Below are positions 1-20,700 of a DNA stretch of 20,700 nucleotides, in pieces. A program made the translations under genes and the position numbers. The stretch comes from a virus. Each line of letters starts with the position of its first letter. The stretch's first letter is position 1. The notes beneath the pieces were generated by a model that had not been told where the DNA came from, searched no databases, and was given only the letters and a program-made list of their open reading frames with translations. Location: the IMG/VR virus record IMGVR_UViG_3300017749_000174, positions 1 to 20,700 of that record. One strand, written 5' to 3'.

Positions 1-22
1 TAATAGATAGTATTATTATACT

Positions 23-667
23 ATGCATTATGAAACAACACCTTTATTCTCTACACCTCTTCTAAAGTCACACTTAGGACCATTAGATCCTATTACACTT
101 GCATGGCTCAAGCGTTTAGATTATCCAAATAGCGCAGTTGCTCAGTATGGTAACGAAGATCATTTGCCTGAATCAGAAAGAGGATTTGATATATTAAGTC
201 AACCAAAGTTATTAAATTTAAAAACTTTAATTAAACGTGCAGTAGATTATTTTGCTTATACAGTACTAGATGTTATTGACGATGTTGAGTTTCAACTTAC
301 TACTAGTTGGATTAATAAAATGAATACTGGTAGTGATATAGAATTACACAATCATGCTAATGCTGTAATTAGTGGAGTATACTATCCTGATGTAGGACCA
401 ACTAGTAATCCTCTTACGTTTAAAAAGAACAGACAACACTTAAATAGTTTTCCTGAACATGTACGTCCAGATACAAAACAAAACTGGAGTCAATATACTT
501 CAGGCGAATGGACTGTAAAACCAATGACAGGTGACGTATTAATCTTTCCTAGCCATTTAGAACATACTGTTGCTAGAAGTTTGGATAAACAAGATAGATA
601 TAGTTTGGCTTTTAATTATTTTCCAAAAGGAAAAATAGGACAAAATTCAGTTAGGACTTTTATATGA
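23..667 (+). CDS. 2OG-Fe(II) oxygenase-like protein, copy 1
   Basis: A 214-aa protein resembling the small phage/bacterial family of putative 2-oxoglutarate/Fe(II)-dependent oxygenases (TIGR02466-like), whose substrates are generally unknown. Visible motifs are the HNH residues at about 109-111 followed by SGVYYP (the HxH-type metal site), GDVLIFPSHLEHTV at about 170-183 giving the distal His (H181), and RYSLAFNYF at about 192-200, whose Arg would bind the 2OG carboxylate. Together these suggest a cupin (double-stranded beta-helix) fold. The next gene is a diverged relative and starts inside this stop codon (ATGA overlap). No clear Shine-Dalgarno is visible in the 22 bases before the ATG, so the gene may be translated from an upstream operon lying outside the window. 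Family assignment is from motifs; the substrate (nucleobase, protein or small molecule) is unknown. Confidence 0.8.
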   Translation: MHYETTPLFSTPLLKSHLGPLDPITLAWLKRLDYPNSAVAQYGNEDHLPESERGFDILSQPKLLNLKTLIKRAVDYFAYTVLDVIDDVEFQLTTSWINKMNTGSDIELHNHANAVISGVYYPDVGPTSNPLTFKKNRQHLNSFPEHVRPDTKQNWSQYTSGEWTVKPMTGDVLIFPSHLEHTVARSLDKQDRYSLAFNYFPKGKIGQNSVRTFI

Positions 668-1281
668 AATATCAAACTACACCGTTATTTTCAATTCCGT
701 TATTCTATGCAAATATAGGATCAGTTAATGCTGAAACAATGACATGGATTGAAAACTTAGATTATCCAGACGAAGCGGCTGGACATGATCATACTTCAGA
801 CAAATATATTTTAAATAGTCCTCAACTATTGTCACTTAAAGAACAAATTCAAAATGCTTGTAATGTGTTTACAAAAGAAGAATTAAAAATAAATGATGAT
901 GTAGAATTTGAAATGCAGAATAGTTGGATTAATAGACATGTAAAGGATGAACAAAATACACTACACTGGCACAGCAATGCTATGTTAAGTGGAGTATATT
1001 ATATACAAAATGAACCAGATGCTGGAGATATTGTATTTCAAAAGTCACATTTATATTATAACTTATTTCATGATACAGTAAGAGTATCTTTTAAAGAACC
1101 TACACAATACAATACAAACGAATTTTATGTATCACCAAGGTCAGGCGATCTAGTGTTATTTCCAAGTCATTTGGAACATATGGTTACCCCAAATCTAACA
1201 ACAACTCCACGATACAGTTTAGCATTTAATTTCTTTGCTAGGGGGACTGTAGGCGGCGGAACATCGGAACTTAAATTATGA
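664..1281 (+). CDS. 2OG-Fe(II) oxygenase-like protein, copy 2
   Basis: A 205-aa relative of the preceding protein. Both begin with a similar M-x-Y-x-TTPLFS N-terminus and share an SWIN segment, an H-x-H metal motif (HWH at about 101-103) followed by SGVYY, a GDLVLFPSHLEH block with the distal His, and RYSLAFNFF near the C-terminus. All predicted iron and 2OG ligands are therefore present in both copies. The middle regions differ substantially, so this is an old duplication rather than a recent repeat. The ATG overlaps the upstream stop by 4 nt and the stop overlaps the next ATG by 4 nt, so the two oxygenases and the dNMP kinase are probably translationally coupled. The substrate is not deducible. 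Confidence 0.8.
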   Translation: MKYQTTPLFSIPLFYANIGSVNAETMTWIENLDYPDEAAGHDHTSDKYILNSPQLLSLKEQIQNACNVFTKEELKINDDVEFEMQNSWINRHVKDEQNTLHWHSNAMLSGVYYIQNEPDAGDIVFQKSHLYYNLFHDTVRVSFKEPTQYNTNEFYVSPRSGDLVLFPSHLEHMVTPNLTTTPRYSLAFNFFARGTVGGGTSELKL

Positions 1282-1889
1282 TTATAGGAATATGCGGCTT
1301 AATTGGCTGTGGTAAAGGAACAGTAGGAGATATCTTAGTTGAGAATCACGGATTTACAAAACTAAGTTTTGCTGATAAATTAAAAGATGGCGTAGCAACA
1401 GTATTCAATTGGGATCGTACTATGCTTGAAGGGGACACTGTAGAAAGCAGAGAATGGCGCGAAACACAAGACGACTTTTGGACTAGAGAAACTGGACGTA
1501 CAATTACACCTAGACTAGTGTTACAAGAGTTTGGTACTGATTGTATGCGTCATGGATTTAATGATGGTATTTGGGTAAGTTTAGTAAAACAAGAATTAGT
1601 TAAATATCCTAATAAAAATTTTGTTATACCTGATGTACGTTTTCCAAACGAAGCAAATATGATTAAGAGCATACACGGCGAAGTATGGCGTGTAAGACGT
1701 GGACAAGATCCTGTATGGATGCGTATGTATCAAGACATTGGTGTTGAACCTAAAGATGTACATGAGTCTGAATGGCGCTGGGCGAACGTTGATTTTAATA
1801 ATATTATATATAACGACTTAGGTATTAACGAACTTAAAAGTCAGGTAAAAGGTCTCCTTGTTTCCAACGAACACCTTGCTTCTGCATAA
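1278..1889 (+). CDS. 1: Deoxynucleoside monophosphate kinase (T4 gp1-like)
   Basis: A 203-aa P-loop kinase. The N-terminus MIIGICGLIGCGKGTVGDIL contains the Walker A loop (GLIGCGKGT, residues 7-15), followed by LSFADKLKDGVA, typical of T4 gp1-type dNMP kinases that convert dNMPs to dNDPs for phage DNA synthesis. A QEFGTDCMR segment and the VIPDVRFPNEA block (about 116-126) are further family features. It is coupled to the oxygenase upstream by a 4-nt overlap. Its last 56 bases are shared with the 3' end of the HNH-type gene on the opposite strand, so the C-terminal residues may have been altered when that gene arrived. The enzyme assignment is firm; exact substrate range is unknown. Confidence 0.88.
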   Translation: MIIGICGLIGCGKGTVGDILVENHGFTKLSFADKLKDGVATVFNWDRTMLEGDTVESREWRETQDDFWTRETGRTITPRLVLQEFGTDCMRHGFNDGIWVSLVKQELVKYPNKNFVIPDVRFPNEANMIKSIHGEVWRVRRGQDPVWMRMYQDIGVEPKDVHESEWRWANVDFNNIIYNDLGINELKSQVKGLLVSNEHLASA

Positions 1890-2169
1890 TACGTTGACAG
1901 TTTGCACATATAGTTTTTAAGTTTAGAATACTACAATTTTCTAAATTACCATCTATATGATATACATTAAATTGCTCATGGTGCTTACTTTTAAATCCGC
2001 ACTTTTCACAACTGTCCTTTTTAGTATATCCTCTTTGCTTCCATTTTGGTACACCGTGCTTTGGCCCATTGCGTAAACATGTTTCACACTTCTTTCGATA
2101 GTATGTTTTGCCGGCTTTCTTATAGTTTATAGCCGCTGGTCGTAGTTTACAATCACATAAAGGTCTCAT
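1834..2169 (-). CDS. HNH-type zinc-finger protein, possible homing endonuclease relative
   Basis: A 111-aa protein with several Cys pairs: C28/C31, C54/C57 (CEKC) and C88/C91 (CANC). Between the last two pairs is the HNH-like core YHIDGN (about 70-75) followed by NLKTICANCQ. This matches the CxxC...H-hidgN...NL..iCxxC layout of phage HNH proteins. However, the usual HH is YH and the final His after the last Cys pair is Gln, so nuclease activity is uncertain. It is the only complete gene on the minus strand and overlaps the 3' end of dNMP kinase by 56 bases. A GGTAAATA late-promoter-like octamer lies 4 nt before its ATG. It may be a free-standing homing-type endonuclease or a degenerate DNA-binding relative. 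Confidence 0.75.
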   Translation of the reverse strand: MRPLCDCKLRPAAINYKKAGKTYYRKKCETCLRNGPKHGVPKWKQRGYTKKDSCEKCGFKSKHHEQFNVYHIDGNLENCSILNLKTICANCQRIMQKQGVRWKQGDLLPDF

Positions 2170-2173
2170 GTTG

Positions 2174-2181
2174 TATTTACC
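2174..2181 (-). promoter_or_regulatory. Late-promoter-like octamer for the HNH gene
   Basis: Read on the minus strand this is GGTAAATA, followed by CAAC and the ATG of the HNH-type gene. It matches the octamers before the + strand late genes, in particular GGTAAATA before gp17. A start about 6 nt downstream would fall at or just inside the ATG. Confidence 0.45.
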
Positions 2182-2236
2182 ACACCTTTTTGGTCCCTTT
2201 TTCTGGTGTTATTATAGGCATTTTAATTTCAATTCA

Positions 2237-2244
2237 TATAAATA
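2237..2244 (+). promoter_or_regulatory. T4-type late promoter of gp18
   Basis: A perfect TATAAATA, the T4 late promoter -10 consensus. It sits in the intergenic gap 38 nt before the gp18 ATG. A transcript starting 5-7 nt downstream would have a leader of about 25 nt containing the AAGGAG ribosome-binding site at 2262-2267. It is the only copy in the window with T at the first position; the others have G. Confidence 0.8.
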
Positions 2245-2274
2245 CTATGAACACTTTTATTAAGGAGAAACACA

Positions 2275-5200
2275 ATGGCATTATCATCACCAGGTGTTGA
2301 GGTTAAAGTAATAGACGAAAGTTTTTACACGCCCAGCGAACCAGGCACCGTACCAATGATATTTGTTGCTACCGCACAAGATAAACAAAATGGCGGCGGG
2401 ACTGGTACAGCACCAGGAACGACAGCGGCAAATGCAGGTAAACCTTTTTTGGTTACCTCACAAAGAGATTTAGTAGAAACATTCGGCGAACCAAAATTTT
2501 ATACGGATACTAACAATAATCCGATACATGCAGGCGAACTTAATGAATATGGACTACAAGCGGCTTACTCACTATTAGGTGTAAGTAACAGAGCATATGT
2601 AGTTAGAGCAGGCGTTGACCTAAGTGGGTTGACAGCAAGTGCAGATGCTCCAACAAGTAACCCAGCAAATGGCACATATTGGGTAGATACAGCAAGCAAT
2701 GTATATGGTATCTTTGAATGGAATTCAGCAGGAGCAAATACGCTCGGCGGTCAATCGTTTGGATACAAAAAGCCATTAGTAATTACAGATGCAACTAGAC
2801 TATTTGGCGAAGTTGCAACAGGCGCACCAAAAACGTCAGTAGGCGCAGTAGGCGACTATGCTATTACAGCGGCAAGTACACTACACAAACTATACTACAA
2901 AAATGAAAGTGGTACATGGGTTGAAGTAGGAACTGGCGCATGGAAAGCAAGTTGGTCTACAACAGCAGGTACTGCTGGTGCAACAACAACTTCAGGCTTG
3001 AACTTTACTATTAACAGTACTACAGTTACAGCAAACGCAACAGACGCAACAGCATTAGCGGCAGTAATTAATGGTTTAAGCATTAGTGGTGTTACAGCAA
3101 CAGTTGAAGCGGCTAACGATATATTAAGATTACACTCAACAGGTGTTAACATTGTACTAGCAGAAGGCACAGGCGCATTAGGCGACATGGGTCTTGTAGC
3201 AGGAACATATGCGGCACCAGCGTTGAATATTGCTCCTCATACAAGTGTTCCCGAGTTTGGTGCAAGTGATACAACTCCACGTCCAACAGGAAGTATTTGG
3301 GCAAAGACTACTACACCAAATAAAGGTGCTAAATGGGCAATCAAAGTTTGGAATGATGCAACTAAATTATGGGACACAAAAGATGTTCCAATTTTTAGTT
3401 CAAACCAAGCGGCTCTAGCAACACTTGATAAAGCAGGCGGCGGTTTAAATCTTGCAACATCAAGTCTTTATATTAAATCAAACGATGCTGAAGCATCTGA
3501 TTTAGTAGCAAACTTTAAAGTGTACAAACGCAATTCAACAGGTGCAACAAGTATTACTTCAAGTGCAGTAACTACACAAGCATCTAGTGGTACAGCATCA
3601 TTTACTCTTCAAGAGTCAATTGTAGGCAGTGCAACACTAGGAAGTGCAGTAACAATTTCACAGGCAGTTGATGGTGATGCAGGTGATGCTGATCATATTG
3701 CAGGTGCAATTAACTCAGCAGGACTTACAAATGTAAGTGCAAGTGTTGACTCACAAAACAGAGTTGTAATTTCACACTCAAAAGGTGGTGATTTTAGAAT
3801 TAAAGATACAAGTGGTCACTTAGCAGAAATTGGTTTTAGTATAACAGATACTGCAAACTTATATACTGCTCCAGCAGGCGATACAAGTGCAGACTTTATT
3901 GCTACAAACTGGAAAGTTTTATCAGCAACTAATAGTTCAAGTGCTCCAACTGCTTTAGCAGTAGACGGAACATTATGGTACAATAGTATTGTTGACGAAG
4001 CAGACATTATGGTACACAATGGTACAACTTGGGTAGGTTATCAAGATACGTCTAGTCCGTACTTTGCGGCGGCGGCAGGTGATAAAACTGATCCATTAGG
4101 ACCAATTGTAAGTGCTACTGAGCCGTTAGCGGCAACAGGACAATCAGATGGAACTGGTCTTAAAGACGGTGACCTTTGGATTAACACTACAAATATTGAC
4201 AAGTATCCAGAGATTTATCGCTGGTCACATGCTAAACAACTTTGGGTGTTATTAGATTCAAGTGATCAAACAACATCAGATGGTGTATTGTTTGGTGATG
4301 CACGTTGGTCAACAGCAGGTTCACTTAGTAAAGAAGCAACTATTGTAGATTTACTAGCAAGTAACTTCTTAGATCCAGATGCTCCAGATCCAGCATTGTA
4401 TCCAAAAGGTATGATTTTATTTAACACACGCAGAAGCGGATTTAATGTTAAGAAATTTGTACGTAACTATATTGATACAACAAGTGAAAACGGACGTCAA
4501 GGAGATGCATTAATGAATTCTTACTATCCACACAGATGGGTAACTGAGTCAGCAAATAATGCAGACGGTTCAGGTAAGTTTGGTCAATCAGCACAGAGAG
4601 CAGTTGTTGTACAAGCAATGCAATCAATGATTAACAGCAACCAAGACATTCGTGATGATGAATCAAGAGTGTTTAACTTAATGGCGGCACCAGGATATCC
4701 AGAACTAATTGGTGAAATGATTTCACTAAACTATGACAGAGGCTTAACAGCATTTGTTGTAGGCGATTCACCAGCAACACTAGATTCAAGTGCTACATCA
4801 CTAAACGAATGGGGTACAAACGTTGCCCTTGCAGTTGAAGATAACAGTGACGGTCTAGTAAGTAGAGATGAATACTTAGGTGTTTACTATCCATGGGGCT
4901 TTACAAGTGATAACGCAGGTAACAACGTTGTTGTTCCGCCGAGTCATATGATGCTAAGAACTATTGCGTTAAGCGATCAAGTTTCGTTTCCATGGTTTGC
5001 TCCAGCAGGAACAAGACGTGGTGGAATTACTAACGCAACAGCGACAGGGTATATTGATAACGAAGGAGAATTTGTTTCAATTGCACTAAACGAAGGACAG
5101 CGTGATACGTTGTTTGGTATTAGTGTAAACCCAATTACATTTATTACAGGCGCAGGACTTGTTTGTTTTGGACAAAAAACAAGAGCAAGAAATGCAAGTG

Positions 5201-5523
5201 CATTAGATAGAGTAAACGTTGCTAGACTAGTAATATACATGCGTAGCCAACTTAATAAACTTGCTAAGCCTTACATCTTTGAGCCAAATGATAAAATCAC
5301 ACGTGATGAGATCAAACAAGCGGCTGAAAGTCTAATGCTTGAGTTAGTTGGTAGTAGAGCACTATACGACTACATTGTAGTATGTGACGAATCTAACAAT
5401 ACTCCTAGTAGAATTGATAGAAACGAACTATACTTAGACATTGCAATTGAACCAGTTAAGGCTGTGGAATTCATTTACATTCCACTTAGACTTAAGAATA
5501 CAGGAGAGATTGCAGGATTATAA
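2275..5523 (+). CDS. 18: Tail sheath protein gp18, enlarged
   Basis: The contractile tail sheath subunit, which polymerises around the tube and contracts to drive injection. The N-terminus MALSSPGVEVKVIDES and the C-terminal region (about 700-1082), including the FVVGDSP, YYPWGF, VPPSHMMLRTIA and EFIYIPLRLKNTGEIAGL segments, are typical of T4-like sheaths. At 1082 aa it is far longer than T4 gp18 (659 aa). The excess lies at about residues 120-690. That region holds five degenerate repeats with a G-x-[LIY]-W or related opening and a later W (about 132-155, 190-225, 337-370, 562-590, 629-660). It also holds two modules (about 240-312 and 445-530) resembling flagellin/FliD IN-type repeats. The start is supported by AAGGAG 7 nt upstream and by the late promoter. 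Confidence 0.93.
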   Translation: MALSSPGVEVKVIDESFYTPSEPGTVPMIFVATAQDKQNGGGTGTAPGTTAANAGKPFLVTSQRDLVETFGEPKFYTDTNNNPIHAGELNEYGLQAAYSLLGVSNRAYVVRAGVDLSGLTASADAPTSNPANGTYWVDTASNVYGIFEWNSAGANTLGGQSFGYKKPLVITDATRLFGEVATGAPKTSVGAVGDYAITAASTLHKLYYKNESGTWVEVGTGAWKASWSTTAGTAGATTTSGLNFTINSTTVTANATDATALAAVINGLSISGVTATVEAANDILRLHSTGVNIVLAEGTGALGDMGLVAGTYAAPALNIAPHTSVPEFGASDTTPRPTGSIWAKTTTPNKGAKWAIKVWNDATKLWDTKDVPIFSSNQAALATLDKAGGGLNLATSSLYIKSNDAEASDLVANFKVYKRNSTGATSITSSAVTTQASSGTASFTLQESIVGSATLGSAVTISQAVDGDAGDADHIAGAINSAGLTNVSASVDSQNRVVISHSKGGDFRIKDTSGHLAEIGFSITDTANLYTAPAGDTSADFIATNWKVLSATNSSSAPTALAVDGTLWYNSIVDEADIMVHNGTTWVGYQDTSSPYFAAAAGDKTDPLGPIVSATEPLAATGQSDGTGLKDGDLWINTTNIDKYPEIYRWSHAKQLWVLLDSSDQTTSDGVLFGDARWSTAGSLSKEATIVDLLASNFLDPDAPDPALYPKGMILFNTRRSGFNVKKFVRNYIDTTSENGRQGDALMNSYYPHRWVTESANNADGSGKFGQSAQRAVVVQAMQSMINSNQDIRDDESRVFNLMAAPGYPELIGEMISLNYDRGLTAFVVGDSPATLDSSATSLNEWGTNVALAVEDNSDGLVSRDEYLGVYYPWGFTSDNAGNNVVVPPSHMMLRTIALSDQVSFPWFAPAGTRRGGITNATATGYIDNEGEFVSIALNEGQRDTLFGISVNPITFITGAGLVCFGQKTRARNASALDRVNVARLVIYMRSQLNKLAKPYIFEPNDKITRDEIKQAAESLMLELVGSRALYDYIVVCDESNNTPSRIDRNELYLDIAIEPVKAVEFIYIPLRLKNTGEIAGL

Positions 5524-5533
5524 TTCATAAAAT

Positions 5534-5555
5534 GAGCCCCTGAAATATGGGGTTC
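5534..5555 (+). terminator. Hairpin after gp18, weak terminator or processing site
   Basis: Arms GAGCCCC (5534-5540) and GGGGTTC (5549-5555) form a 7-bp stem with one G-U pair and an 8-nt loop. No T-run follows, so it is not a classical intrinsic terminator. It may stabilise the 3' end of the sheath mRNA or attenuate read-through into gp19. Confidence 0.5.
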
Positions 5556-5561
5556 GTTAAT

Positions 5562-7855: not shown

Positions 7856-8290
7856 ATGGGACGTTTTGCTCAAGGAAAATATAATTTAAAAAACCCAGAC
7901 AAGTATATTGGAAACAGAACTCCTACATATAGAAGTAGTTGGGAATTTGCATTTATGAAGATGTGTGATGAACATGCTTATATTCAAGCATGGGCTAGTG
8001 AAGCAGTAAAGATTCCTTATAGAAATCCATTAACAGGTAAACATACAATATACGTGCCTGACTTTTTTATTGCATATGCAAATAAAGGTGGCAGTAGAAA
8101 AGTTGAAATAATAGAAGTTAAACCTGAGAACCAAACATTAAAAGAAAAACTTGGGCGTAGCAAACACAATCAAGCGGCATGGATTGTAAATCAAGCAAAA
8201 TGGGAAGCCGCTAGAGCATGGTGTAAACAAAAGGGTATGTTTTTTAGAATTGTTACTGAAAAAGATATTTTCCATAGCGGCAAACGATAA
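7856..8290 (+). CDS. 4: Head completion nuclease (T4 gp4-like), PD-(D/E)xK fold
   Basis: A 144-aa protein with the residues of a PD-(D/E)xK nuclease in order: E30 in RSSWEFAFM, D69 in VPDFFI, and E87-x-K89 in EIIEVKP. This matches T4 gp4/gp50-type head-completion proteins (T4 gp4 is about 150 aa), which act on filled heads and are thought to process the DNA end before tail joining. The fold also resembles the TnsA catalytic domain. The C-terminus has a basic KWEAARAWCKQKG helix. The gene starts 3 nt after the previous stop, and its own stop lies within the late-promoter octamer of the next gene. Confidence 0.82.
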   Translation: MGRFAQGKYNLKNPDKYIGNRTPTYRSSWEFAFMKMCDEHAYIQAWASEAVKIPYRNPLTGKHTIYVPDFFIAYANKGGSRKVEIIEVKPENQTLKEKLGRSKHNQAAWIVNQAKWEAARAWCKQKGMFFRIVTEKDIFHSGKR

Positions 8291-9406: not shown

Positions 9407-10138
9407 ATGAAAGATCTATTACAAAAATTAACGGACCTAGAGAACACTTTAGATTCAATGGACCCAACACCAAAAGAAGTTAAGCAAATTAATGAAGCGG
9501 CTTCAATGAGTATTAATATGTCAGGTGAAACAGCAGATGATGTTGCACGCCTAGTACAAATTATGCGTGATGGTGGAGCACCAGATGCAGGCGAAATGAA
9601 GCCAGACATGATGCCACCAATGGGACCACCAGATATGGGTAAGATGCGTGACCTAGTTAAAATGGCACCACCAATTGACATGGACGGAATGGACGGACCA
9701 CCAGATATGCCAGGCATGGACAAAGGTGATGACAAAGATGCTATTATGGGCATGGATATGGAAGATGACGTAGAAGAAGCAGGCTACGACAACTCACCAG
9801 AAGAAGATTATAAAGATCATAACTATATGACTAAAGATTTATCAGGCGGTATTAACCGTGAGAAGAAAGCATATGCGGCCGCTCAAGACGGCGATAATGC
9901 AATGGCTGTAGAAGAATTACAATCAGCATTACGTGATGCACTTATGTCTAAAATGGCAGAAACAGATGAAGTAGTTGAAGCAGAAGAAGATGACTTTGAC
10001 GAATCAGGATGTGTAGGCGAAATGAAAAAACTTATGGCAAGCGGCTGTACTAAAACAGAAATGTTCCAAAAAGTACAAGACGGATACGGTTGCGGTAAAG
10101 GTCAATTCGAAAAACTATTCGCGGCACACTGCGGCTAA
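9407..10138 (+). CDS. Unknown Met/Asp/Pro-rich acidic protein
   Basis: A 243-aa protein of three parts. Residues 1-55 are helical and include KQINEAASMSI, where INE followed by Ala matches a prohead-protease site. Residues 56-125 are low complexity and very rich in Met, Asp, Pro and Gly. Residues 126-243 include YMTKDLSGGINREKKAYAAA, an acidic Glu/Asp run (about 185-199) and a compact C-terminal module with four Cys (202, 214, 229, 242) that could bind metal or form disulphides. The AGGAGG ribosome-binding site is 5 nt before the ATG. The gene ends at a strong terminator. I know no function; a packaged or scaffold-like role is suggested only by neighbours and acidity. Confidence 0.75.
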   Translation: MKDLLQKLTDLENTLDSMDPTPKEVKQINEAASMSINMSGETADDVARLVQIMRDGGAPDAGEMKPDMMPPMGPPDMGKMRDLVKMAPPIDMDGMDGPPDMPGMDKGDDKDAIMGMDMEDDVEEAGYDNSPEEDYKDHNYMTKDLSGGINREKKAYAAAQDGDNAMAVEELQSALRDALMSKMAETDEVVEAEEDDFDESGCVGEMKKLMASGCTKTEMFQKVQDGYGCGKGQFEKLFAAHCG

Positions 10139-10194: not shown

Positions 10195-11775
10195 ATGAGC
10201 AAATCACTAGACGGCGTCTTAATTAAGAAAGCCAATAAACGAGAAGCATTTACGAATGATCAAGTGGAACAGTTACTTAAATGTAGCGACACTAAATTTG
10301 GTTATGACTACTTTGCTCGTAACTTTGCATACATACAGCATCCTGTTAAAGGTAAACTTTTGTTTGATCCATTTGAATATCAAACACGATTGCTCCAAAG
10401 TTATCACGATTATAGATTTAATATTAATATGTTGCCTAGACAAACTGGCAAAACAACATGTGCCGCAATTTATTTGTTATGGTATGCAATGTTTGTTCCT
10501 GATCAAACTATTCTAATTGCCGCACACAAGTATACTGGTGCACAAGAAATTATGCAACGTATTAGATATGGATATGAAATGTGTGCTGATCATATTAGAG
10601 CAGGAGTTACAAACTATAACAAAGGCTCAATTGAATTTGAAAACGGTTCACGTATTGTAAGTGCCACAACAACAGGAAACACAGGACGTGGTATGTCCAT
10701 ATCATTATTATACTGCGATGAGTTTGCATTTGTTATGCCTAATGTTGCCACAGACTTTTGGACATCAATATCACCTACACTAGCAACAGGTGGTCGTGCT
10801 ATTCTTACAAGCACACCTAACAGTGATGAAGATACTTTTGCTACTATATGGAAACAGGCAGAAGATAAGTTTGACGAACACGGAAATGAAAACGAATTAG
10901 GACGTAATGGATTTCATAGTTTCCGTAGTTACTGGCAAGAGCATCCTGACAGAGATGATAAATGGAAAGATGAAGAACTAGGACGTATTGGTGAAGAAAG
11001 ATTTAAACGTGAATACGATTGTGAATTTTTAGTATATGACGAAACATTAATTAACTCAATTAAGTTAGCCGCACTTGAAGGTGACAATCCTATTATTAAT
11101 ATGGGGCAAACACGTTGGTATAAAAAACCTAGTCCAGGGTTTACATATGCTGTAGCACTTGATCCTAGTATGGGTACAGGTGGAGACAATGCGGCTATTC
11201 AAGTATTTGAATTACCTAGTTATGAACAGGTAGCAGAATGGCAACATAATCAAACTGCTATTCCAGCACAAATAAGAATAATGACAGATATATGTAAGCA
11301 TATTGAAAAAGAAACTGGCGATGCAAGTACAATCTATTGGAGTGTTGAAAACAACGGATTAGGCGAAGCCGCACTTATTGTTATTAATGACTTTGGTGAG
11401 GAGAATATACCTGGACTATTTGTAAGTGAACCTATTAGAAAAGGACATGTACGTAAGTTCCGCAAAGGATTTAATACTACACATGGCTCTAAAGTAACAG
11501 CATGTAGTCGACTAAAGACCATGGTTGAAAACGATAAAATGATTCTACACAGCAAACCTTTTATATCAGAACTCAAAAACTTTGTAGCAACAGGCTCAAG
11601 TTATAATGCAAAACTAGGGCAAACCGACGATTTAATTAGTGCAACGCTATTAGCACTCAGAATGATGGATGTACTCAAGGATTGGGATCCTAGAATCTAT
11701 GATACATTTAATCAGTCAGATCAGCACGGAGATTATATAGAGCCAATGCCAATCTTCGTTAGTAACAATTATTGA
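10195..11775 (+). CDS. 17: Large terminase subunit gp17
   Basis: The packaging motor: an N-terminal ATPase and C-terminal nuclease that cut concatemeric DNA and translocate it into the prohead. ATPase motifs are FDPFEYQTRLLQ (adenine motif, about 57-68), Walker A PRQTGKTT (81-88), Walker B LLYCDEFAFV with D175-E176, and the coupling motif TSTPNS (about 205-210). Nuclease acidic residues appear as D323 in VALDPSMGTGGD, E385 in VENNGLGE, and D478/D479 in GQTDDLISA. At 526 aa it is shorter than T4 gp17 (610 aa), with the difference at the N-terminus. It is separated from gp16 by two genes. Its TGA lies within the promoter octamer of the following gene. Confidence 0.96.
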   Translation: MSKSLDGVLIKKANKREAFTNDQVEQLLKCSDTKFGYDYFARNFAYIQHPVKGKLLFDPFEYQTRLLQSYHDYRFNINMLPRQTGKTTCAAIYLLWYAMFVPDQTILIAAHKYTGAQEIMQRIRYGYEMCADHIRAGVTNYNKGSIEFENGSRIVSATTTGNTGRGMSISLLYCDEFAFVMPNVATDFWTSISPTLATGGRAILTSTPNSDEDTFATIWKQAEDKFDEHGNENELGRNGFHSFRSYWQEHPDRDDKWKDEELGRIGEERFKREYDCEFLVYDETLINSIKLAALEGDNPIINMGQTRWYKKPSPGFTYAVALDPSMGTGGDNAAIQVFELPSYEQVAEWQHNQTAIPAQIRIMTDICKHIEKETGDASTIYWSVENNGLGEAALIVINDFGEENIPGLFVSEPIRKGHVRKFRKGFNTTHGSKVTACSRLKTMVENDKMILHSKPFISELKNFVATGSSYNAKLGQTDDLISATLLALRMMDVLKDWDPRIYDTFNQSDQHGDYIEPMPIFVSNNY

Positions 11776-14681: not shown

Positions 14682-14691
14682 TCAACATAAT

Positions 14692-14737: not shown

Positions 14738-15835
14738 ATGGCTAAATCGTTCGACGTTAGTAAGTTCCGTAAGGACTTAACTAAAAGCATCTCAGGCATG
14801 AGTAGCGGCTTTAATGATCCTACAGATTGGATCTCAACAGGCTCATATGCACTTAACTATCTTATTAGTGGCGACTTCCACAAAGGTGTTCCACTAGGTA
14901 AGGTAACTGTATTTGCAGGTGAATCAGGCGCAGGTAAATCTTACTTTTGTTCTGGTAACATTGTAAAACACGCACAAGACCAAGGCATCTTTGTAGTACT
15001 AATTGACTCAGAGAATGCACTTGATGAATCGTGGCTACAAGCATTAGATGTAGACACATCAGAAGAAAAACTACTAAAACTTAACATGAGTATGATTGAT
15101 GATGTTGCTAAAACAGTATCAACATTTGTAGCAGACTATAAAGCAATGCCAGAGGAAGATCGTCCTAAAGTATTATTTGTAGTTGACTCATTAGGTATGT
15201 TATTAACACCTACAGACGTAGATCAGTTTAACAAAGGTGATATGAAAGGTGATATGGGTCGTAAGCCTAAGCAATTGACCGCACTTGTTCGTAACACAGT
15301 TAACATGATTGGTTCGCTTAACGTAGGCTTAGTATGTACTAATCACACTTATGCATCACAGGATATGTTTGATCCAGATGACAAGATTAGTGGTGGACAA
15401 GGTTTTGTTTACGCATCAAGTATTGTTGTTGCAATGAAGAAAATGAAACTTAAAGAAGACGAAGCAGGTAATAAGATCTCAGAAGTACGTGGTATACGTG
15501 CAGGCTGTAAAGTTATGAAAACTCGTTATGCAAAACCGTTTGAAGGTGTACAAGTAAAGATCCCATACGAAACAGGTATGAATCCTTACAGTGGTCTTAT
15601 TGAACTATTTGAGAAACAAGACTTGTTAGTGAAACAAGGCAACAGACTCAAGTATGTTGATCTAAACGGAGAAGAACATATTGATTATCGTAAAGCATGG
15701 ATGGTAGGTGAAAAACTTGATTTGATTATGTCGGAATATGCAGACAAAACAGCACCTTTGGTAAATACCGAGGAAGATGATGTAGAAGAAGCATTAACTG
15801 AAAATCAAATTGAGGAAACAGCCGCACATGAATGA
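14738..15835 (+). CDS. uvsX: RecA-like recombinase UvsX
   Basis: A 365-aa strand-exchange recombinase driving recombination-dependent replication and repair. Walker A is GESGAGKS (61-68), Walker B is VLFVVDSLG (145-153), followed by a loop-2 region SGGQGFVYASS (about 218-228) and a TNHTY segment (201-205). The N-terminal GFNDPTDWISTGSYALNYL is typical of T4-like UvsX. The C-terminus is acidic. AAGGAG 5 nt upstream fixes the ATG. The stop overlaps the next gene, placing it in the gp32-uvsX-uvsY operon. Confidence 0.96.
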   Translation: MAKSFDVSKFRKDLTKSISGMSSGFNDPTDWISTGSYALNYLISGDFHKGVPLGKVTVFAGESGAGKSYFCSGNIVKHAQDQGIFVVLIDSENALDESWLQALDVDTSEEKLLKLNMSMIDDVAKTVSTFVADYKAMPEEDRPKVLFVVDSLGMLLTPTDVDQFNKGDMKGDMGRKPKQLTALVRNTVNMIGSLNVGLVCTNHTYASQDMFDPDDKISGGQGFVYASSIVVAMKKMKLKEDEAGNKISEVRGIRAGCKVMKTRYAKPFEGVQVKIPYETGMNPYSGLIELFEKQDLLVKQGNRLKYVDLNGEEHIDYRKAWMVGEKLDLIMSEYADKTAPLVNTEEDDVEEALTENQIEETAAHE

Positions 15836-16064
15836 AGAACAAATACAGGAAGTTTGGACCTTATTTAAAGAATATTTAGATAAGAAACATGTAGAGACTG
15901 CCGCAGAACGCTATGTTGATTTATTAGCAGACTACGGCACAGACGATCACGTGTTAATAGAGTCTATGGGATCGTGTACAATACTAGACAATGCAATAAA
16001 GTATTATCTAGATGATGAAGAAGAAGTACACGACGACGAAGATGGATATGATTGGGAAGAATAA
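15828..16064 (+). CDS. Small acidic protein between uvsX and uvsY
   Basis: A 78-aa protein starting at ATG 15828 within the uvsX 3' end (8-nt overlap). An in-frame TTG at 15810 is less likely. Residues 1-60 look helical, with a TAAERYVDLLADYG stretch (about 24-37). The last 20 residues are almost all Asp/Glu with aromatic residues. From memory, other marine T4-like phages carry a comparable small gene beside uvsX, but I know no function. The acidic tail could mimic DNA or dock on UvsX/UvsY/gp32. The TAA overlaps the uvsY ATG, so the three are translationally coupled. Confidence 0.78.
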   Translation: MNEEQIQEVWTLFKEYLDKKHVETAAERYVDLLADYGTDDHVLIESMGSCTILDNAIKYYLDDEEEVHDDEDGYDWEE

Positions 16065-16516
16065 TGTGGTATAGTGAAGTATCTAGAAACATAAACAAAA
16101 TACCAGACGCGATTGCATACTTTGAAGCAGAATTAAATGATGCAAAGAATGAAGTCAAATTATCTGGTAACGTTGAACGTGCTTCTAGTGCTATGCCCGG
16201 TTTGGTTGAACATCGGTTTAATCAACTTCAAGAAATTGAAGCCATTTTAAACTACTTGAATATCGAACTACGTAGATTGCGTAGTTCGTATTTCAAAAAA
16301 TATCTTGAAAATTATCAACGTGCTTTGTCTAGCAGAGATGTTGATAGATATGTTGACGGCGAAGCAGACGTTGTTGACTATGAAAAAATTATAAATGAAT
16401 TCGCTCTCATGCGTAACAAATGGTTAGGAGTCTTAAAAGGCCTTGACCAGAAGCAATGGCAGATAACTAATATTGTAAAGTTAAGAGTTGCTGGCATGGA
16501 GGACGCATCCGTTTAA
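16064..16516 (+). CDS. uvsY: Recombination mediator UvsY
   Basis: A 150-aa helical protein starting at ATG 16064, which overlaps the previous TAA as TAATG. T4 UvsY (137 aa) loads UvsX onto gp32-coated ssDNA. Here a basic helical section (LNIELRRLRSSYFKKYLENY, about 64-83) is followed by a DGEADVVDYEKI segment (about 98-109) and a C-terminal helix with GLDQKQWQITNIVKLR (about 126-141). This parallels the length and helical layout of cyanophage UvsY proteins. Position directly after uvsX and the small acidic gene supports the call. Confidence 0.8.
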   Translation: MWYSEVSRNINKIPDAIAYFEAELNDAKNEVKLSGNVERASSAMPGLVEHRFNQLQEIEAILNYLNIELRRLRSSYFKKYLENYQRALSSRDVDRYVDGEADVVDYEKIINEFALMRNKWLGVLKGLDQKQWQITNIVKLRVAGMEDASV

Positions 16517-17313
16517 TGTATACATTTGTTACTAGCCTAAACAAGGCATATTGGAATTCAACTTCCAAAGTTAATATTAATAGTTGGGTAGAATGTTTAC
16601 CAGAAGATGTAAACATTGTAATTTATAGTGAAGAAAACATTGACATTGGAATCTTTCCAGAGCCACGTGTAAGTTTAAAGCCATTGTATGATAGCAAACC
16701 TTTGCTAGAATTTATTAACAAACATAAAGAAGATCCACACTATAATGGTCAAGTTGGTCGTAAGTTAGAAGGCAGTAGTAAGTCTTTTAAATGGCAAGGT
16801 ATTAAGTTTGCACATAAAACTTTTGCTATATTCCAAGAAGCAAAACTACACGACAGTGGTAAACTGTTTTGGTTAGATGCTGATGTGCTTATGCACAATA
16901 TGATTGATCATAAATGGTTAGATAATTTATTGCCAGACAATAAAGCAATTAGTTACCTAGGCAGGCCTGCAGAATATGATGAATGCGGATTAATGGGATA
17001 TAATTTAAACACACAATTCGCTAAAGATTTTCTTACAAGTTTTGAAAACCAATACACGGGTGGATTAGAACACCTAAGAGAAACTCACGACAGTTGGGTA
17101 TTTTATCAATTACGACTAGGTTTTGAAGATCAAAGTCCGTTCCTTAATTTAAATCCAACACCAAAAGATAATAAAAGTCCTTTTAATAATAGTGGAATTA
17201 ATAGTCATATGGTACACACAAAAGGAAAAAGTAAAGAACGTTTACAACAAAAATTCTTAAAAAGATTTGCATTAGCAAAAGAACGGGCATTGAGAGAAAA
17301 GCATGGAACTTGA
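16516..17313 (+). CDS. GT-A-like glycosyltransferase
   Basis: A 265-aa protein with the layout of a nucleotide-sugar transferase. The N-terminal strand MYTFVTSLNKAYW leads into a Rossmann-like half (VNIVIYSEENID). A KLFWLDADVLMH segment contains the D-A-D metal-binding motif (121-123). Acceptor-side residues may include DECGLMGYNLN (about 155-165), and a C-terminal HMVHTKGKSK lies at about 231-240. It overlaps uvsY by one base and the methyltransferase by 11 bases, so it is expressed with both. Its sugar and acceptor are unknown: host envelope glycan, virion protein or modified DNA base are all possible. Confidence 0.72.
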   Translation: MYTFVTSLNKAYWNSTSKVNINSWVECLPEDVNIVIYSEENIDIGIFPEPRVSLKPLYDSKPLLEFINKHKEDPHYNGQVGRKLEGSSKSFKWQGIKFAHKTFAIFQEAKLHDSGKLFWLDADVLMHNMIDHKWLDNLLPDNKAISYLGRPAEYDECGLMGYNLNTQFAKDFLTSFENQYTGGLEHLRETHDSWVFYQLRLGFEDQSPFLNLNPTPKDNKSPFNNSGINSHMVHTKGKSKERLQQKFLKRFALAKERALREKHGT

Positions 17314-17857
17314 AGCACACCTAGGCGGACACCAGGGTAAAACACATACTGATGAAGGAACACTTCGTTGGGCAATAGATAAACTAAAAGTAAAATCAAT
17401 GTTAGATGTTGGCTGTGGACCAGGTGGTATGGTCGAACTTGCAAATAGTTTAGATGTTGATGCATACGGAGTTGATGGCGACTACACTCTTGAAAGATAT
17501 AATGAATCTAAATTTATTATACATGATTTTACTAAAGGACCAGCACCAGTAGGCGGAAGTTACGACTTAGCATGGAGCGTTGAATTTGTTGAACATGTAT
17601 ACGAAGAATATATTCCTAACTATGTACAAGCAATGCAAAAATGTAAATTTTTGATTATGACTTATGCTCCGGTTGGGCACGGCGGACATCATCATGTAAA
17701 CGAAAATACACAAGATTATTGGATTCAAACAATGTCTGATTATGGGTTTAAATACCTAGAAGATCTAACATTAGAAATGCGTAGGCACAGTACTATGGGT
17801 AGTAAAAAGAAACATAAATTTTTAGCACGAACAGGATTACTTTTTAAAAAGTTATGA
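17303..17857 (+). CDS. Class I SAM-dependent methyltransferase
   Basis: A 184-aa methyltransferase. Motif I is MLDVGCGPGG (33-42), which binds SAM; the acidic residue ending strand 2 is in AYGVDGD (about 54-60). A later SYDLAWSVEFVEHV segment (about 86-99) is motif-IV-like, typical of small-molecule or sugar methyltransferases rather than DNA enzymes (no DPPY/NPPY). YAPVGHGGHHHVNENTQDYW (about 131-150) is a His-rich segment common in phage and polysaccharide-cluster enzymes of this group. It overlaps the glycosyltransferase by 11 bases, suggesting O-methylation of the sugar that enzyme transfers. Confidence 0.82.
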   Translation: MELEAHLGGHQGKTHTDEGTLRWAIDKLKVKSMLDVGCGPGGMVELANSLDVDAYGVDGDYTLERYNESKFIIHDFTKGPAPVGGSYDLAWSVEFVEHVYEEYIPNYVQAMQKCKFLIMTYAPVGHGGHHHVNENTQDYWIQTMSDYGFKYLEDLTLEMRRHSTMGSKKKHKFLARTGLLFKKL

Positions 17858-17873
17858 GGATAGGATAGAATTA

Positions 17874-18581
17874 ATGGAGCCATTCTTTTCTGTAGGTGTA
17901 AAAGAAAATTTTTTATTCGATATTTACGAACAAAAAAGTATAAAAAAGTTAGCAAAGTCTTTAGGGCCGATGTGGAAATACGCTGATTATAAGAGTAATC
18001 CTATAGAAACAAAATTAAATAAATTTGGATACAGAACAAAACAAGATTATCTACCAGACGAATATTATCTTATGCTCGGGTGTAGTCATACATTTGGACA
18101 ATATCTGCATGATAAAGATACAGCGGCAAACATGCTAGAAATACAACTAGGAAAACCTATAATTAATTTGGGAATCAGGGGCGGTGCATCTAATGCTATG
18201 GCTCAAAATTTACAACGACTGATGATGTCATCGTATCAAAAACCAAAAGCAATTTTCGCACAATGGCCGGAAATATACAGATATACATTTTTTGCGGAAA
18301 ATAGTGTAAAAAATATCACGGCTGGTGTAAAAGAACCTAAAAGATTACTAATATTTAAATATCTTTTAAACATGCCTAAGGTTTTTCAAACAGCAAGTAA
18401 TCATGCATATGAATATGTAAATAGTTTAGGGATACCAGTAATAAATTATTCTTTAAATGGTTGTAGTGCAGATTACTTTGGAATTAAAGAAATAGATAGA
18501 ATAGACTTTGCTAGAGATAATCTACATGCTGGCGCAGAAACAAATAAAAAAATAGCAAGTTTTGTAATGGAAAAATTATAA
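17874..18581 (+). CDS. SGNH/GDSL-like hydrolase or acyltransferase
   Basis: A 235-aa protein with ordered SGNH blocks. Block I is YLMLGCSHTFGQ with candidate nucleophile S71. Block II is INLGIRGGASNAM (about 97-109). A block III-like AQWPEIYRY (about 129-137) lacks the usual GxND. Block V DNLHAG supplies the D-x-x-H pair (D215, H218). SGNH proteins in glycan clusters often add or remove acetyl groups. A GAGGATAGGA-type ribosome-binding site precedes the ATG after a 16-nt gap. No signal peptide or membrane segment is visible, so it should act in the cytoplasm. Esterase versus transferase cannot be told apart. Confidence 0.75.
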   Translation: MEPFFSVGVKENFLFDIYEQKSIKKLAKSLGPMWKYADYKSNPIETKLNKFGYRTKQDYLPDEYYLMLGCSHTFGQYLHDKDTAANMLEIQLGKPIINLGIRGGASNAMAQNLQRLMMSSYQKPKAIFAQWPEIYRYTFFAENSVKNITAGVKEPKRLLIFKYLLNMPKVFQTASNHAYEYVNSLGIPVINYSLNGCSADYFGIKEIDRIDFARDNLHAGAETNKKIASFVMEKL

Positions 18582-18583
18582 TA

Positions 18584-19501
18584 ATGAATAAAGTAGTTGC
18601 CATAAAAGAACTATTATGGAGTTGGCATCCATTACCAACTGAATGGACTGTTGTACCGTATGCGGACAAAGCAACTATTAACAGTGCAGATGTACTTGTA
18701 CAATCAAATCAATCAGGAAGTAAAAAAGAACGCAAACTCGGCCACATATATAACTATGTGAAAGATTGTGGAAAGCCTTATATTGTAACAGAAAGTGCAG
18801 TCTTTAGAAAAAATATGGCAGACCCAGATCCAGGTAAGCCAGGAAAAACATATCATCGCTTTAGTTGGACAAGTTATTTTAGAGACGAAGGTGACTATTG
18901 TAATGCTAACAGTCCTAGTGATAGATGGGAACAAGTTCAAAAAGATCAAGACTTAGTTGTTAAAGATTGGCGCACTAAAGGTAACTATGTCTTGGTAATG
19001 TTACAGCGTCCGGGCGATAGTAGTTTAGTAAACCTACTTAAAAAGCACGGAAGTTATGAAGGATTTGTTACACATACACTAAATGAAATAAAAAAGTATA
19101 CTGATAGACCTATACGAGTACGTATGCATCCATCACGTATAGATAGACAACAAAAAATATTAAAAGACTTTGATGTACAATTAAGTGACAACTTACAAGG
19201 CGCAGGATTATTATCAGGCGGCGCAGGACTACAAGCAGACTTTGATAATGCGTGGTGTGTAGTAGGTTTTAATTCAAACGGACTTACTGAAAGTATAATG
19301 GAAGGCATCCCAACATTTAGTATGTGTCCTAGTTCAATGGCGTGGGATTGTAGTAATAAAGATTTAGCAAACATTGAAAACCCAGAAATGTTTGAGAGAC
19401 AACAGTGGTTAAATAATTTAGCATACTGCCAGTGGCGCGAAGACGAATGCCTAGCAGGATTGCCGTGGAAACATTTAAGGAAAAAATATGCCCAAAAATA
19501 A
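18584..19501 (+). CDS. Capsule-polysaccharide-synthesis-like glycosyltransferase (KpsC/KpsS-type)
   Basis: A 305-aa protein resembling the GT-B-like enzymes of capsule synthesis. Visible blocks are YVLVMLQRPGDSS (about 135-147), IRVRMHPSR (about 177-185) and VVGFNSNGLTESIMEGIPTF (226-245), where the Glu followed by Gly-x-Pro resembles a nucleotide-sugar site. A Trp/Cys-rich C-terminal section follows (AWDCSN, NLAYCQWREDECL). It starts 2 nt after the preceding stop and overlaps the GSCFA gene by 14 bases, so it is part of the same operon. Family similarity is from motif layout; donor and acceptor are unknown. Confidence 0.68.
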   Translation: MNKVVAIKELLWSWHPLPTEWTVVPYADKATINSADVLVQSNQSGSKKERKLGHIYNYVKDCGKPYIVTESAVFRKNMADPDPGKPGKTYHRFSWTSYFRDEGDYCNANSPSDRWEQVQKDQDLVVKDWRTKGNYVLVMLQRPGDSSLVNLLKKHGSYEGFVTHTLNEIKKYTDRPIRVRMHPSRIDRQQKILKDFDVQLSDNLQGAGLLSGGAGLQADFDNAWCVVGFNSNGLTESIMEGIPTFSMCPSSMAWDCSNKDLANIENPEMFERQQWLNNLAYCQWREDECLAGLPWKHLRKKYAQK

Positions 19502-20438
19502 ATTTGCAGATATAACAATACATCCTAACAGTGCTAAATTAAGTGCTGGTAATTTTAAAGTAGAAAAGAGTGCATGGCACAAAGGAGATGTAAATTATTT
19601 TCCTGCTAAGAAAGAACAGTTTGCAGACTTAGATGCAATGGCAAAAGAGTTTATATTTAAAGGATATGGTCCTGATACACCTATGTTTGGTAACGACGAT
19701 ACAGTAGTTACTATGGGTAGTTGCTTTGCAGATAGATTACGTAATTGGTTAAATGCAAACGGTAAAGGCACTAGTTATATTAATGTACCTGAAGGACTTA
19801 ATAATAGTTTTGCTGTAAGACAATATTTAGAGTGGGCGTTAACAGGCGACAGAAGTACTGATGCATATTGGTACGATAATGACAAGACACTAGGTGCATT
19901 TCAATGGCAACCAGACCAAGAACAACAAAAATTGTTACAACATTTCAAAGAAGTTAGTGCAGTTGTTGTTACATTTGGACTAGGCGAAGTATGGAAAGAC
20001 GTAGAAACAAACAACGTATTTTGGAGAGGTGTACCTGCAAAAAGTTACGATCCTGCAAAACATAAATGTGTATCTAGTACAGTACAAGAAAATGTAGATA
20101 ATATGAAACGCATTGTTGAACTTATCAAGACATATGCAGGTGCAGATAAAACTGTAATCTTTACACTAAGTCCAGTACCTCTAAATGCAACATTCAGCAA
20201 CCGACCTACAATGGTAAGTGACTGTGTTAGTAAAAGTATCTTACGTGTAAGTTTAGACCAGTTCTTTAATGAAAACAAGCACAATAATATTCATTACTGG
20301 CCTAGTTTTGAAATGGTACGTTGGGTAGGCGCACATACAGATATTCCTACACTGTTTGAAGACAACACAACAAGACATGTTAATAATGATATTGTAAAAA
20401 TTATTATTGAAAACTTTGTTGCTAAATTTTTTAAGTAA
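19488..20438 (+). CDS. GSCFA-domain protein
   Basis: A 316-aa protein of the GSCFA family, named after its motif, here VVTMGSCFADRL (GSCFA at 77-81). The family is related to SGNH hydrolases and found in polysaccharide clusters. Further blocks are VVTFGLGEVWKD (about 160-171), VIFTLSPVPLNATF (about 223-236), IHYWPSFEMVRW (about 268-279) and FEDNTTRHVNND (about 290-301), whose Asp and His could complete a catalytic set. The start overlaps the upstream gene by 14 bases with TTAAGGA as ribosome-binding site. It is a second probable hydrolase/transferase in this operon besides the SGNH-like gene. It meets the minus-strand gene tail to tail with an 8-base overlap. Confidence 0.82.
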   Translation: MPKNKFADITIHPNSAKLSAGNFKVEKSAWHKGDVNYFPAKKEQFADLDAMAKEFIFKGYGPDTPMFGNDDTVVTMGSCFADRLRNWLNANGKGTSYINVPEGLNNSFAVRQYLEWALTGDRSTDAYWYDNDKTLGAFQWQPDQEQQKLLQHFKEVSAVVVTFGLGEVWKDVETNNVFWRGVPAKSYDPAKHKCVSSTVQENVDNMKRIVELIKTYAGADKTVIFTLSPVPLNATFSNRPTMVSDCVSKSILRVSLDQFFNENKHNNIHYWPSFEMVRWVGAHTDIPTLFEDNTTRHVNNDIVKIIIENFVAKFFK

Positions 20439-20700
20439 ACAAACTATCTAAGTAACTTTGTTCTATTACTTTATCTTCTTTAAAGTATAAATTAATTACA
20501 TCATATAACTTATCTGAGTCTTTAAATTTAGTTGCAACGTCATGACTGCCATATGTAACTAACTTATTAATATTTGGATTATTAGGAATAAGATCCATAT
20601 GTTTTGTTTCATAACCTTTATGTCCAGAAATAAATGTGTAATCTGTCCACGGTACAAAATTCAAATGTTTATGTTTATATTTTTTAATATCTTTTCTATA
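20431..20700 (-). CDS. 3' part of a minus-strand gene, sulfotransferase-like at best
   Basis: The reading frame is open from the window edge (20700) to a stop at 20431, giving the last 89 residues; its start lies outside. The visible part begins YRKDIKKYKHKHLNFVPWTD and ends with DSDKLYDVINLYFKEDKVIE and a short tail. The pattern (a His/Lys-rich segment, a strand, then a terminal helix with x-LY-x-x-D-like spacing) is reminiscent of the C-terminus of cytoplasmic sulfotransferases, which occur in marine phage glycan clusters. This is only a guess, about one in four. It converges on the GSCFA gene and does not share its operon. Confidence 0.6.
   Translation of the reverse strand, partial: YRKDIKKYKHKHLNFVPWTDYTFISGHKGYETKHMDLIPNNPNINKLVTYGSHDVATKFKDSDKLYDVINLYFKEDKVIEQSYLDSLFT

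What the first reader, a model, noticed from the sequence alone, without database searches (positions are those of the whole stretch)
1..20700. GCAGC/GCTGC (GCWGC) seems absent, and Ala-Ala pairs are recoded to avoid it
I found no GCAGC or GCTGC on either strand, although GCAG, CAGC, GCTG and GCGGC/GCCGC are common. The effect is visible in codon pairs. Single Ala is mostly GCA or GCT, yet every Ala-Ala I inspected uses GCG or GCC first: GCG-GCG-GCG-GCA at 4066-4077, GCG-GCC-GCT at 9875-9883, GCC-GCA at 10462-10467, and the minus-strand HNH gene. Composition predicts about a dozen GCWGC sites, and the Ala-Ala pairs would add more. GCWGC is a known restriction-type motif (ApeKI/TseI/BbvI specificity), so this is a candidate second avoided word, independent of AGCT.
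Basis: partly seen in the sequence, partly recalled or inferred. Interest (0 to 1): 0.78.

Follow-up and report, generated by a model that had tools for sequence, protein, structure and literature searches.

The report
Jumbo phage purged of restriction words
A giant bacterial virus, probably marine, and its relatives have removed particular four- and five-letter DNA words from their genomes without changing their proteins, most likely to escape DNA-cutting enzymes of their unknown hosts, and the letters next to the few surviving words hint at what those enzymes read.

Summary
GCAGC/GCTGC (GCWGC) is absent from the window: 0 against 25 (Markov) or 33.5±2.6 (synonymous shuffles). AGCT is absent too (0 against about 51 or 55). 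All 36 Ala codons before GC are GCG or GCC, against 29 of 453 elsewhere; Ala-Ala pairs are not depleted. The window is a fragment of a jumbo myovirus distantly related to Pseudomonas phage PA5oct. A 182-kb contig of its clade has 0 GCWGC (193 expected) and 0 AGCT (about 395 expected). Many relatives lack GCWGC but keep AGCT; others lack CATG, ACGT, CTAG, CGCG or CTWAG; many lack nothing. In 227 overlapping sequences nine 4/5-mer classes ever fall to 6% of expectation, all palindromic or centre-palindromic, which points to Type II-like endonucleases; one asymmetric word (GCAGT, 9%) is an exception. Survivors follow flank rules: a 335-kb relative keeps 35 GCWGC sites, all GGCWGC or GCWGCC. Three methyltransferase families were not found in the avoider contigs tested. 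The nuclease genes followed occur in avoiders and non-avoiders alike. Best reading: avoidance of host restriction sites, a known strategy in an unusually complete, lineage-switching form. A phage-borne nuclease is not excluded.

The parts
1..20700 (.). whole window without GCAGC/GCTGC and without AGCT on either strand
4066..4077 (+). Ala codon run GCG-GCG-GCG-GCA in the 2275-5523 CDS, written so that no GCWGC arises
   Evidence: string checked; reading frame
9875..9883 (+). Ala codon run GCG-GCC-GCT in the 9407-10138 CDS, no GCWGC
   Evidence: frame
10462..10467 (+). Ala-Ala GCC-GCA in the terminase CDS, no GCWGC
   Evidence: frame
10195..11775 (+). terminase large subunit, the marker used to find the 80 relatives and to build the tree
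1834..2169 (-). 111-aa HNH-like gene, tested as a candidate nuclease: present in avoiders and non-avoiders alike
   Evidence: HNH pattern by eye; no Pfam family at E 0.001; weak PADLOC ZorE/homing endonuclease matches; distribution
7856..8290 (+). TnsA-like endonuclease N-terminal domain protein, orthologues in most records of the group irrespective of word status
   Evidence: PF08722 2.8e-22; orthologue column of G001 170443-170880

Best explanation
This is restriction-site avoidance. Hosts of these phages carry sequence-specific, mostly symmetric (Type II-like) endonucleases: one reading GCWGC (in some lineages effectively HGCWGCD) and, for the window's clade, a second reading AGCT. Each unprotected site risks a cut, so selection has replaced every site, mainly by synonymous change (GCG/GCC instead of GCA/GCT before GC), leaving the proteins intact. 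When a lineage meets hosts with other enzymes the old word drifts back and another is purged, which gives the patchwork of missing words over the tree. Shown: absence over whole contigs, synonymous recoding, palindromic character of the nearly eliminated words, lineage switching, flank rules. Inferred: that an endonuclease is the agent, that it is host-encoded, and that partly depleted lineages are recovering.
For: Absence over 182 kb of the window's clade (0 of 193 GCWGC, 0 of about 395 AGCT) and synonymous recoding. Only nine 4/5-mer classes ever reach 6% or less of expectation in 227 (partly overlapping) sequences and all nine are palindromes or centre-palindromes (P 8e-8 for the seven 4-mers, 0.004 for the two 5-mers). 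Words switch by clade: 10 changes on the terminase tree against a shuffled mean of 40.2. Symmetric tolerated flanks in N57, 35 of 35. No PF00145, PF01555 or PF02086 methyltransferase match in the avoider contigs tested, including the 335-kb N57 contig. Candidate phage nucleases do not follow word status. Literature: loss of Type II sites is a known phage strategy, complete or nearly so in about a tenth of genomes (PMC6286503); pelagiphages lose GANTC by clade (PMC9516812 passages); aquatic prokaryotes carry m4C at GCWGC and AGCT (PMC6329791 passages).
Against: No host is known and no enzyme of either specificity was found. GCAGT in G032 is an asymmetric word brought to 13 of 147, HGCAGT to zero, which a simple homodimeric Type II enzyme does not explain; GTWAC in G005 is only partly lost (46 of 231). 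Exact flank exceptions are sharper than I would expect of a plain restriction enzyme (recalled judgement). The lake methyltransferases for GCWGC and AGCT in PMC6329791 were listed there without a partner restriction system. Elimination is deep in the tree and shared by related lineages, which a vertically inherited phage gene would also explain.
Confidence: 0.72

Rival explanations
1. A phage-encoded endonuclease without a partner methyltransferase cuts host or rival-phage DNA at GCWGC (and AGCT). The phage protects itself only by having no such sites, and the enzyme's specificity changes between lineages.
For: No methyltransferase was found in avoider contigs. The group carries conserved nuclease genes: a 111-aa HNH in 13 of the 13 records with the adjacent sheath gene, a SegE-like GIY-YIG (PF19835), and in N57 an HNH_5 protein with a weak PADLOC Type II restriction enzyme match (8.7e-07). 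Motifs look related between lineages: GCWGC, HGCWGCD, HGCAGT.
Against: These genes also occur in phages that keep the words. The window's HNH is 76-79% identical to that of non-avoiders G005, G009 and G011 but only 60% to that of G006, which lacks GCWGC and nearly all AGCT as the window does. The SegE-like gene is in G005 and G031 too. HNH_5 93% identical to that of N57 sits in L293-L295, which keep 12 of 27, 11 of 26 and 9 of 21 GCWGC.
Confidence: 0.13
2. Another host DNA-targeting defence (for example an asymmetric Type IIS, Type III-like or BREX-like system) rather than orthodox Type II enzymes imposes the loss, at least for some words.
For: GCAGC/GCTGC can also be read as one asymmetric site on both strands; GCAGT in G032 is asymmetric.
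Against: All nine most strongly eliminated classes are symmetric. In N57 both flanks confer tolerance (21 left-only, 11 right-only, 3 both). ACTGCD is lost on both strands in G032, and PMC6286503 reports that avoidance is rarely seen for Type III and not for Type I sites.
Confidence: 0.1
3. Neutral composition or codon bias: the words are missing without any enzyme.
For: Other words (AACC, CTTA, CATG, GGCC) are mildly depleted in many of the contigs.
Against: Zero of hundreds expected; relatives of like G+C keep the words; GCSGC is enriched where GCWGC is gone (54 against 12.5 in shuffles); exact flank rules.
Confidence: 0.01

Closest known systems
Elimination of Type II restriction sites by lytic dsDNA phages (Rusinov et al. 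2018, PMC6286503; abstract, Results and part 1 of the Discussion read)
   Same: Palindromic short words lost to under a tenth of expectation in phage genomes, other words normal.
   Different: There the host and its enzyme are known or predicted; here neither is. Here whole contigs of 110-186 kb reach zero, the word set switches between close relatives, and survivors obey flank rules.
GANTC depletion that splits the pelagiphage tree (PMC9516812, passages seen)
   Same: Depletion of a methyltransferase target word by clade in ocean phages; about half of 33 genomes.
   Different: One word, tied there to the host's GANTC methyltransferase; here many words and no known host.
GCWGC and AGCT methylation in lake prokaryotes (PMC6329791, passages seen)
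   Same: The same two words are enzyme targets in aquatic prokaryotes (m4C in Chloroflexi and Thaumarchaeota genomes); one genome shows AGCT motifs qualified by flanks.
   Different: Methyltransferases listed there without a partner restriction system; no link to these phages.
Pseudomonas phage PA5oct
   Same: Nearest cultured kind by terminase (about 54% identity); DNA polymerase, QueE-like and exonuclease genes have homologues in the contigs.
   Different: No 4/5-mer is nearly eliminated in its 287 kb.

Membership tests
Restriction-site avoidance by phages | Short recognition-like words far below expectation over the genome | tested here: met
   0 in the window against 25-33 (GCWGC) and 51-55 (AGCT); 0 in 182 kb
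Restriction-site avoidance by phages | Avoided words are palindromic, as for orthodox Type II enzymes | tested here: met
   nine of nine classes at or below 6% of expectation; exception at a looser limit: GCAGT in G032, 9%
Restriction-site avoidance by phages | Sites removed by synonymous change | tested here: met
   Ala codon table and Ala-Ala count in the window
Restriction-site avoidance by phages | Host encodes the cognate restriction enzyme | not testable with these tools
   host unknown; the MAG that holds N57 is not a reliable host link
Phage-borne restriction-like nuclease with self-avoidance | A nuclease gene present in avoiders and missing or different in non-avoiders | tested here: not met
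   three candidate genes followed; other genes not followed, and part of the window clade's genome is not in hand
Phage-borne restriction-modification | Phage DNA methyltransferase | tested here: not met
   no PF00145, PF01555 or PF02086 match in the avoider contigs tested; other families not tested
7-deazaguanine DNA modification | TGT/DpdA-like transglycosylase on the phage contig | tested here: not met
   PF01702: 1 of 23 records, on MAG contig C54 and not on the phage contigs, although a QueE-like gene is present in G001 and G003

The most novel reading that the evidence does not exclude
These phages carry an uncharacterised, re-targeting nuclease of their own with no methylase. Their only immunity to it is the total absence of its target words, and the survivors (GGCWGC, GGCAGT, TGAGCT) spell out its flank-dependent specificity, which shifts between sister lineages (GCWGC, HGCWGCD, HGCAGT).
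Probability: 0.12. Interest if true: 0.85.

Novelty: new member of a known kind. Interest (0 to 1): 0.55.

Why it matters
Missing words in uncultured phage genomes are a footprint of the DNA-cutting enzymes that their hosts impose. In one jumbo-phage group there are at least nine such footprints, switching between close relatives and precise to the neighbouring base. They could be used to assign contigs to one phage lineage, to guess which uncultured hosts carry which restriction specificity, and to measure how fast phages lose and regain sites.

Tried and rejected
Chance or composition: rejected by Markov and synonymous-shuffle nulls. Local effect: rejected by whole contigs. The window's HNH as cause: my ORF-overlap filter first made it look absent from G006, G007 and G012; direct tblastn found it in all 13 of 22 sequences that carry the sheath gene, so presence or absence cannot explain the words. 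SegE-like GIY-YIG: found irrespective of word status. HNH_5 of N57: followed through 59 loci, no link. PF01844 HNH: 7 of 30 records, none over the cut-off. PF01541 GIY-YIG: 0 of 14. Methyltransferases: PF01555 0 of 22 and 0 in the MAG; PF00145 0 of 22 IMG/VR records, 2 of 6 cultured phages, and three hits on other contigs of the MAG; PF02086 2 of 22, one on G048 (whose 20.5-kb locus L300 avoids neither word) and one on MAG contig C32. Host: a BtuB-like receptor of G001 found no relative in genome contigs; DNA polymerase found a 335-kb phage contig in a Neomarinimicrobiota MAG, but MAG contig C48 looks phage-like by eye, so no host is claimed. tRNAs: 0 in 31 stretches. One paper that came up for GCWGC (PMC11094077) holds it only as a primer.

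Limits of the counts. Loci include near-copies, and the 227 sequences include loci that lie within the whole contigs also counted; the ten most distant loci (L341-L350) were left out of it. In one search a group label means at most 10% of expectation (L001 has one AGCT) and L057 was added by hand to the GCWGC-free rows (expectation 4). G009 was taken to 60,000 of 60,502 bases and G044 to 20,000 of 20,506. The 23 loci's GCWGC part were picked for low or partial counts: 12 give 27 of 27 tolerated flanks, the other 11 give 26 of 86. Four cultured phages besides PA5oct were sampled by 20-40 kb only (Atu_ph07 CCAGG 0 of 13, CBB GCGC 0 of about 10). Family scans were partial: A1 and A2 held 104 of the 135 G001 proteins listed, A3 held 86 of 102, A4 held 82 of 105, and long lists were cut at 25 families. 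Habitat is not stated by any search; 'marine' is inferred from recall of the sample series and from the MAG title.
Full report
Observation. The window (20,700 bases, 36% G+C) holds no GCAGC, GCTGC or AGCT. GCAGC and GCTGC are reverse complements, so they are one word on two strands. A maximum-order Markov model expects 25 GCWGC and about 51 AGCT sites. Shuffling synonymous codons within 23 genes, which keeps every protein and every codon count, expects 33.5 and 55.1; 0 of 1000 shuffles reached zero, while GATC and CATG match their shuffles. About 30 of 33 expected GCWGC sites per shuffle are in codon phase, that is Ala followed by Ala. There the phage uses GCG (27) or GCC (9) and never GCA or GCT; elsewhere GCA and GCT make up 424 of 453 Ala codons. 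Ala-Ala pairs are as frequent as expected (36 against 35.9). The DNA was changed and the protein was not.

What the window is. Its terminase large subunit is about 54% identical to that of the cultured Pseudomonas jumbo phage PA5oct. The window is a 20.7-kb virus record with no more sequence behind it. Terminase and DNA polymerase searches of IMG/VR each returned the capped 80 loci of 226 and 598 found.

Genome scale. G001 (182 kb, window clade): 0 GCWGC of 193 expected and 0 AGCT of about 395. G002 (96 kb): 0 AGCT of about 216, 1 GCWGC of 114. G003 (186 kb): 0 GCWGC of 207, AGCT ordinary. G007 (110 kb): 0 GCWGC of 131, AGCT 232 of about 319. G006 (84 kb): 0 GCWGC of 86, AGCT 10 of about 199. 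G012 (45 kb): 0 GCWGC of 45, AGCT 7 of about 92. G008, G009, G011 and the 287-kb PA5oct genome have no 4- or 5-mer below a tenth of expectation.

Phylogeny. On a tree of 81 terminases, taking at most 10% of expectation as loss, 29 loci lack both words, 18 lack GCWGC alone, 4 lack GCWGC and are low in AGCT, 3 lack CATG, 2 lack ACGT, 1 lacks CTWAG and 24 lack none; the labels need 10 changes against a shuffled mean of 40.2. AGCT loss appears in two separate clades, both without GCWGC. Of 37 AGCT-zero loci among those of three searches, only L207 and L308 keep GCWGC sites, all six in tolerated flanks. Observed/expected for GCWGC has a heap at zero (52 of 168 loci below 0.1) and a broad heap near one, with a tail between. 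I read the tail as words returning after the pressure ended; that is inference.

Type of word. In 227 partly overlapping group sequences, testing every 4- and 5-mer class wherever its expectation is 14 or more, nine classes ever fall to 6% or less: AGCT (41 of 217 sequences), GCAGC (38 of 143), CATG (3 of 226), CGCG (3 of 57), ACGT (2 of 224), CTAAG (2 of 169), GGCC (1 of 135), GCGC (1 of 125), CTAG (1 of 215). All nine are palindromes or centre-palindromes; drawn at random this has P 8e-8 for the seven 4-mers and 0.004 for the two 5-mers. Short symmetric words are what dimeric Type II enzymes read (established knowledge). The exception is GCAGT, an asymmetric word at 13 of 147 in G032, just above the limit.

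Flank rules. N57, a 335-kb phage contig from a Neomarinimicrobiota MAG, keeps 35 GCWGC of 413 expected, and all 35 are GGCWGC or GCWGCC. In six records that keep GCWGC, 160 of 774 sites are of that kind (P about 1e-24). Even this kind is fewer than the roughly 85 that this share of 413 would give, so it is tolerated, not neutral. Twelve other low-count loci give 27 of 27; eleven partly depleted loci give 26 of 86. The one site of G002 is also GGCAGC. So in these lineages the eliminated motif is HGCWGCD; G001, G003 and G007 lost the tolerated kind as well. In G032 all 13 surviving GCAGT sites are GGCAGT (ACTGCC). In G006 and G012, 9 of 10 and 6 of 7 surviving AGCT sites lie in AGCTCA/TGAGCT, against 8-9% of AGCT sites in G031, G005, G003 and N57 and 20% in G008. 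In N57 either flank confers tolerance (21 left only, 11 right only, 3 both), which fits symmetric recognition. GTWAC in G005 is only partly lost (46 of 231) and shows no such sharp rule.

Mechanism. The simplest account is restriction-site avoidance. Complete or nearly complete loss of sites is reported for about a tenth of phage genomes, mainly for orthodox Type II sites and non-temperate dsDNA phages (PMC6286503; abstract, Results and part 1 of the Discussion read). About half of 33 pelagiphages are depleted in GANTC, by clade (PMC9516812, passages). Lake genomes carry m4C at GCWGC (Chloroflexi) and AGCT (Thaumarchaeota), and one shows flank-qualified AGCT motifs, though those methyltransferases were listed without a partner restriction system (PMC6329791, passages). 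The avoider contigs tested show no match to PF00145, PF01555, PF02086 or PF01702, so they have no known modification of these kinds to rely on.

Could the enzyme be the phage's own? The candidates followed do not fit. The window's 111-aa HNH is in all 13 of 22 sequences that carry the adjacent sheath gene, and its similarity does not follow word status. The SegE-like GIY-YIG gene is in G001, G003, G004 and N57 but also in G005 and G031. The HNH_5 protein of N57 (169 aa, PF14279 7.8e-16) has close homologues in avoiders and in phages that keep the words, although it also gives a weak Type II restriction enzyme match in PADLOC (8.7e-07). However, something like 100 kb of the window clade's genome (judged from 287 and 335 kb against 182 kb) was not in hand, family scans were partial, and a novel nuclease fold would be missed. 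I keep this rival at about one in eight.

Novelty. In the searches (open-licence PubMed Central only) I saw no paper on word loss in this phage group. A survey of marine jumbo phages, PMC9123017, has no occurrence of 'restriction', 'methyltransferase' or 'endonuclease' in its main text (passages seen). The kind of phenomenon is known. What is unusual is zero over 110-186 kb, two words at once, switching among relatives, and base-exact tolerated flanks.

Noticed in passing
G001 (contig of L013) 112126-114338: Phage-borne TonB-dependent receptor (PF00593/PF07715), BtuB-like by eye, followed by a DUF6580 protein (PF20221). No relative found in genome contigs.
   Followed up: partly
N57 (G045:C57), about 1-78 kb: Many host-like metabolic genes: PEP carboxykinase, alternative oxidase, heme oxygenase, bilin reductase, NifU, phosphate-transport-like components, ribonucleotide reductase.
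   Followed up: no
G032 (contig of L186): GCAGT/ACTGC at 13 of 147 expected, all 13 survivors GGCAGT/ACTGCC: an asymmetric avoided word, HGCAGT.
   Followed up: partly
window 1-20700: GGCC (9 against 23.5) and CGCG (4 against 12.5) are also below the synonymous shuffles, but not eliminated.
   Followed up: no
L318-L325 and L332, L034/L035/L037, L017/L077, L220: Other relatives with zero CGCG (L318-L321, L323-L325, L332), CATG, ACGT or CTAG.
   Followed up: partly
L350, L348, L341: More distant loci from the HNH_5 search lack other words: L350 AGCT 2/47, CCGG 3/29, CCAGG 3/22; L348 CCAGG 0/20; L341 GGCC 0/18.
   Followed up: no
G001 18903-19829 and G003 3638-4507: QueE-like radical SAM gene as in PA5oct, without a TGT/DpdA match on those contigs.
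   Followed up: partly
G045 (MAG RS350): One MAG holds two contigs of this phage group (C57 335 kb, C77 153 kb; both match SegE-like PF19835) and a contig C48 with a C5 methyltransferase that looks phage-like by eye: the bin seems rich in viral DNA.
   Followed up: no
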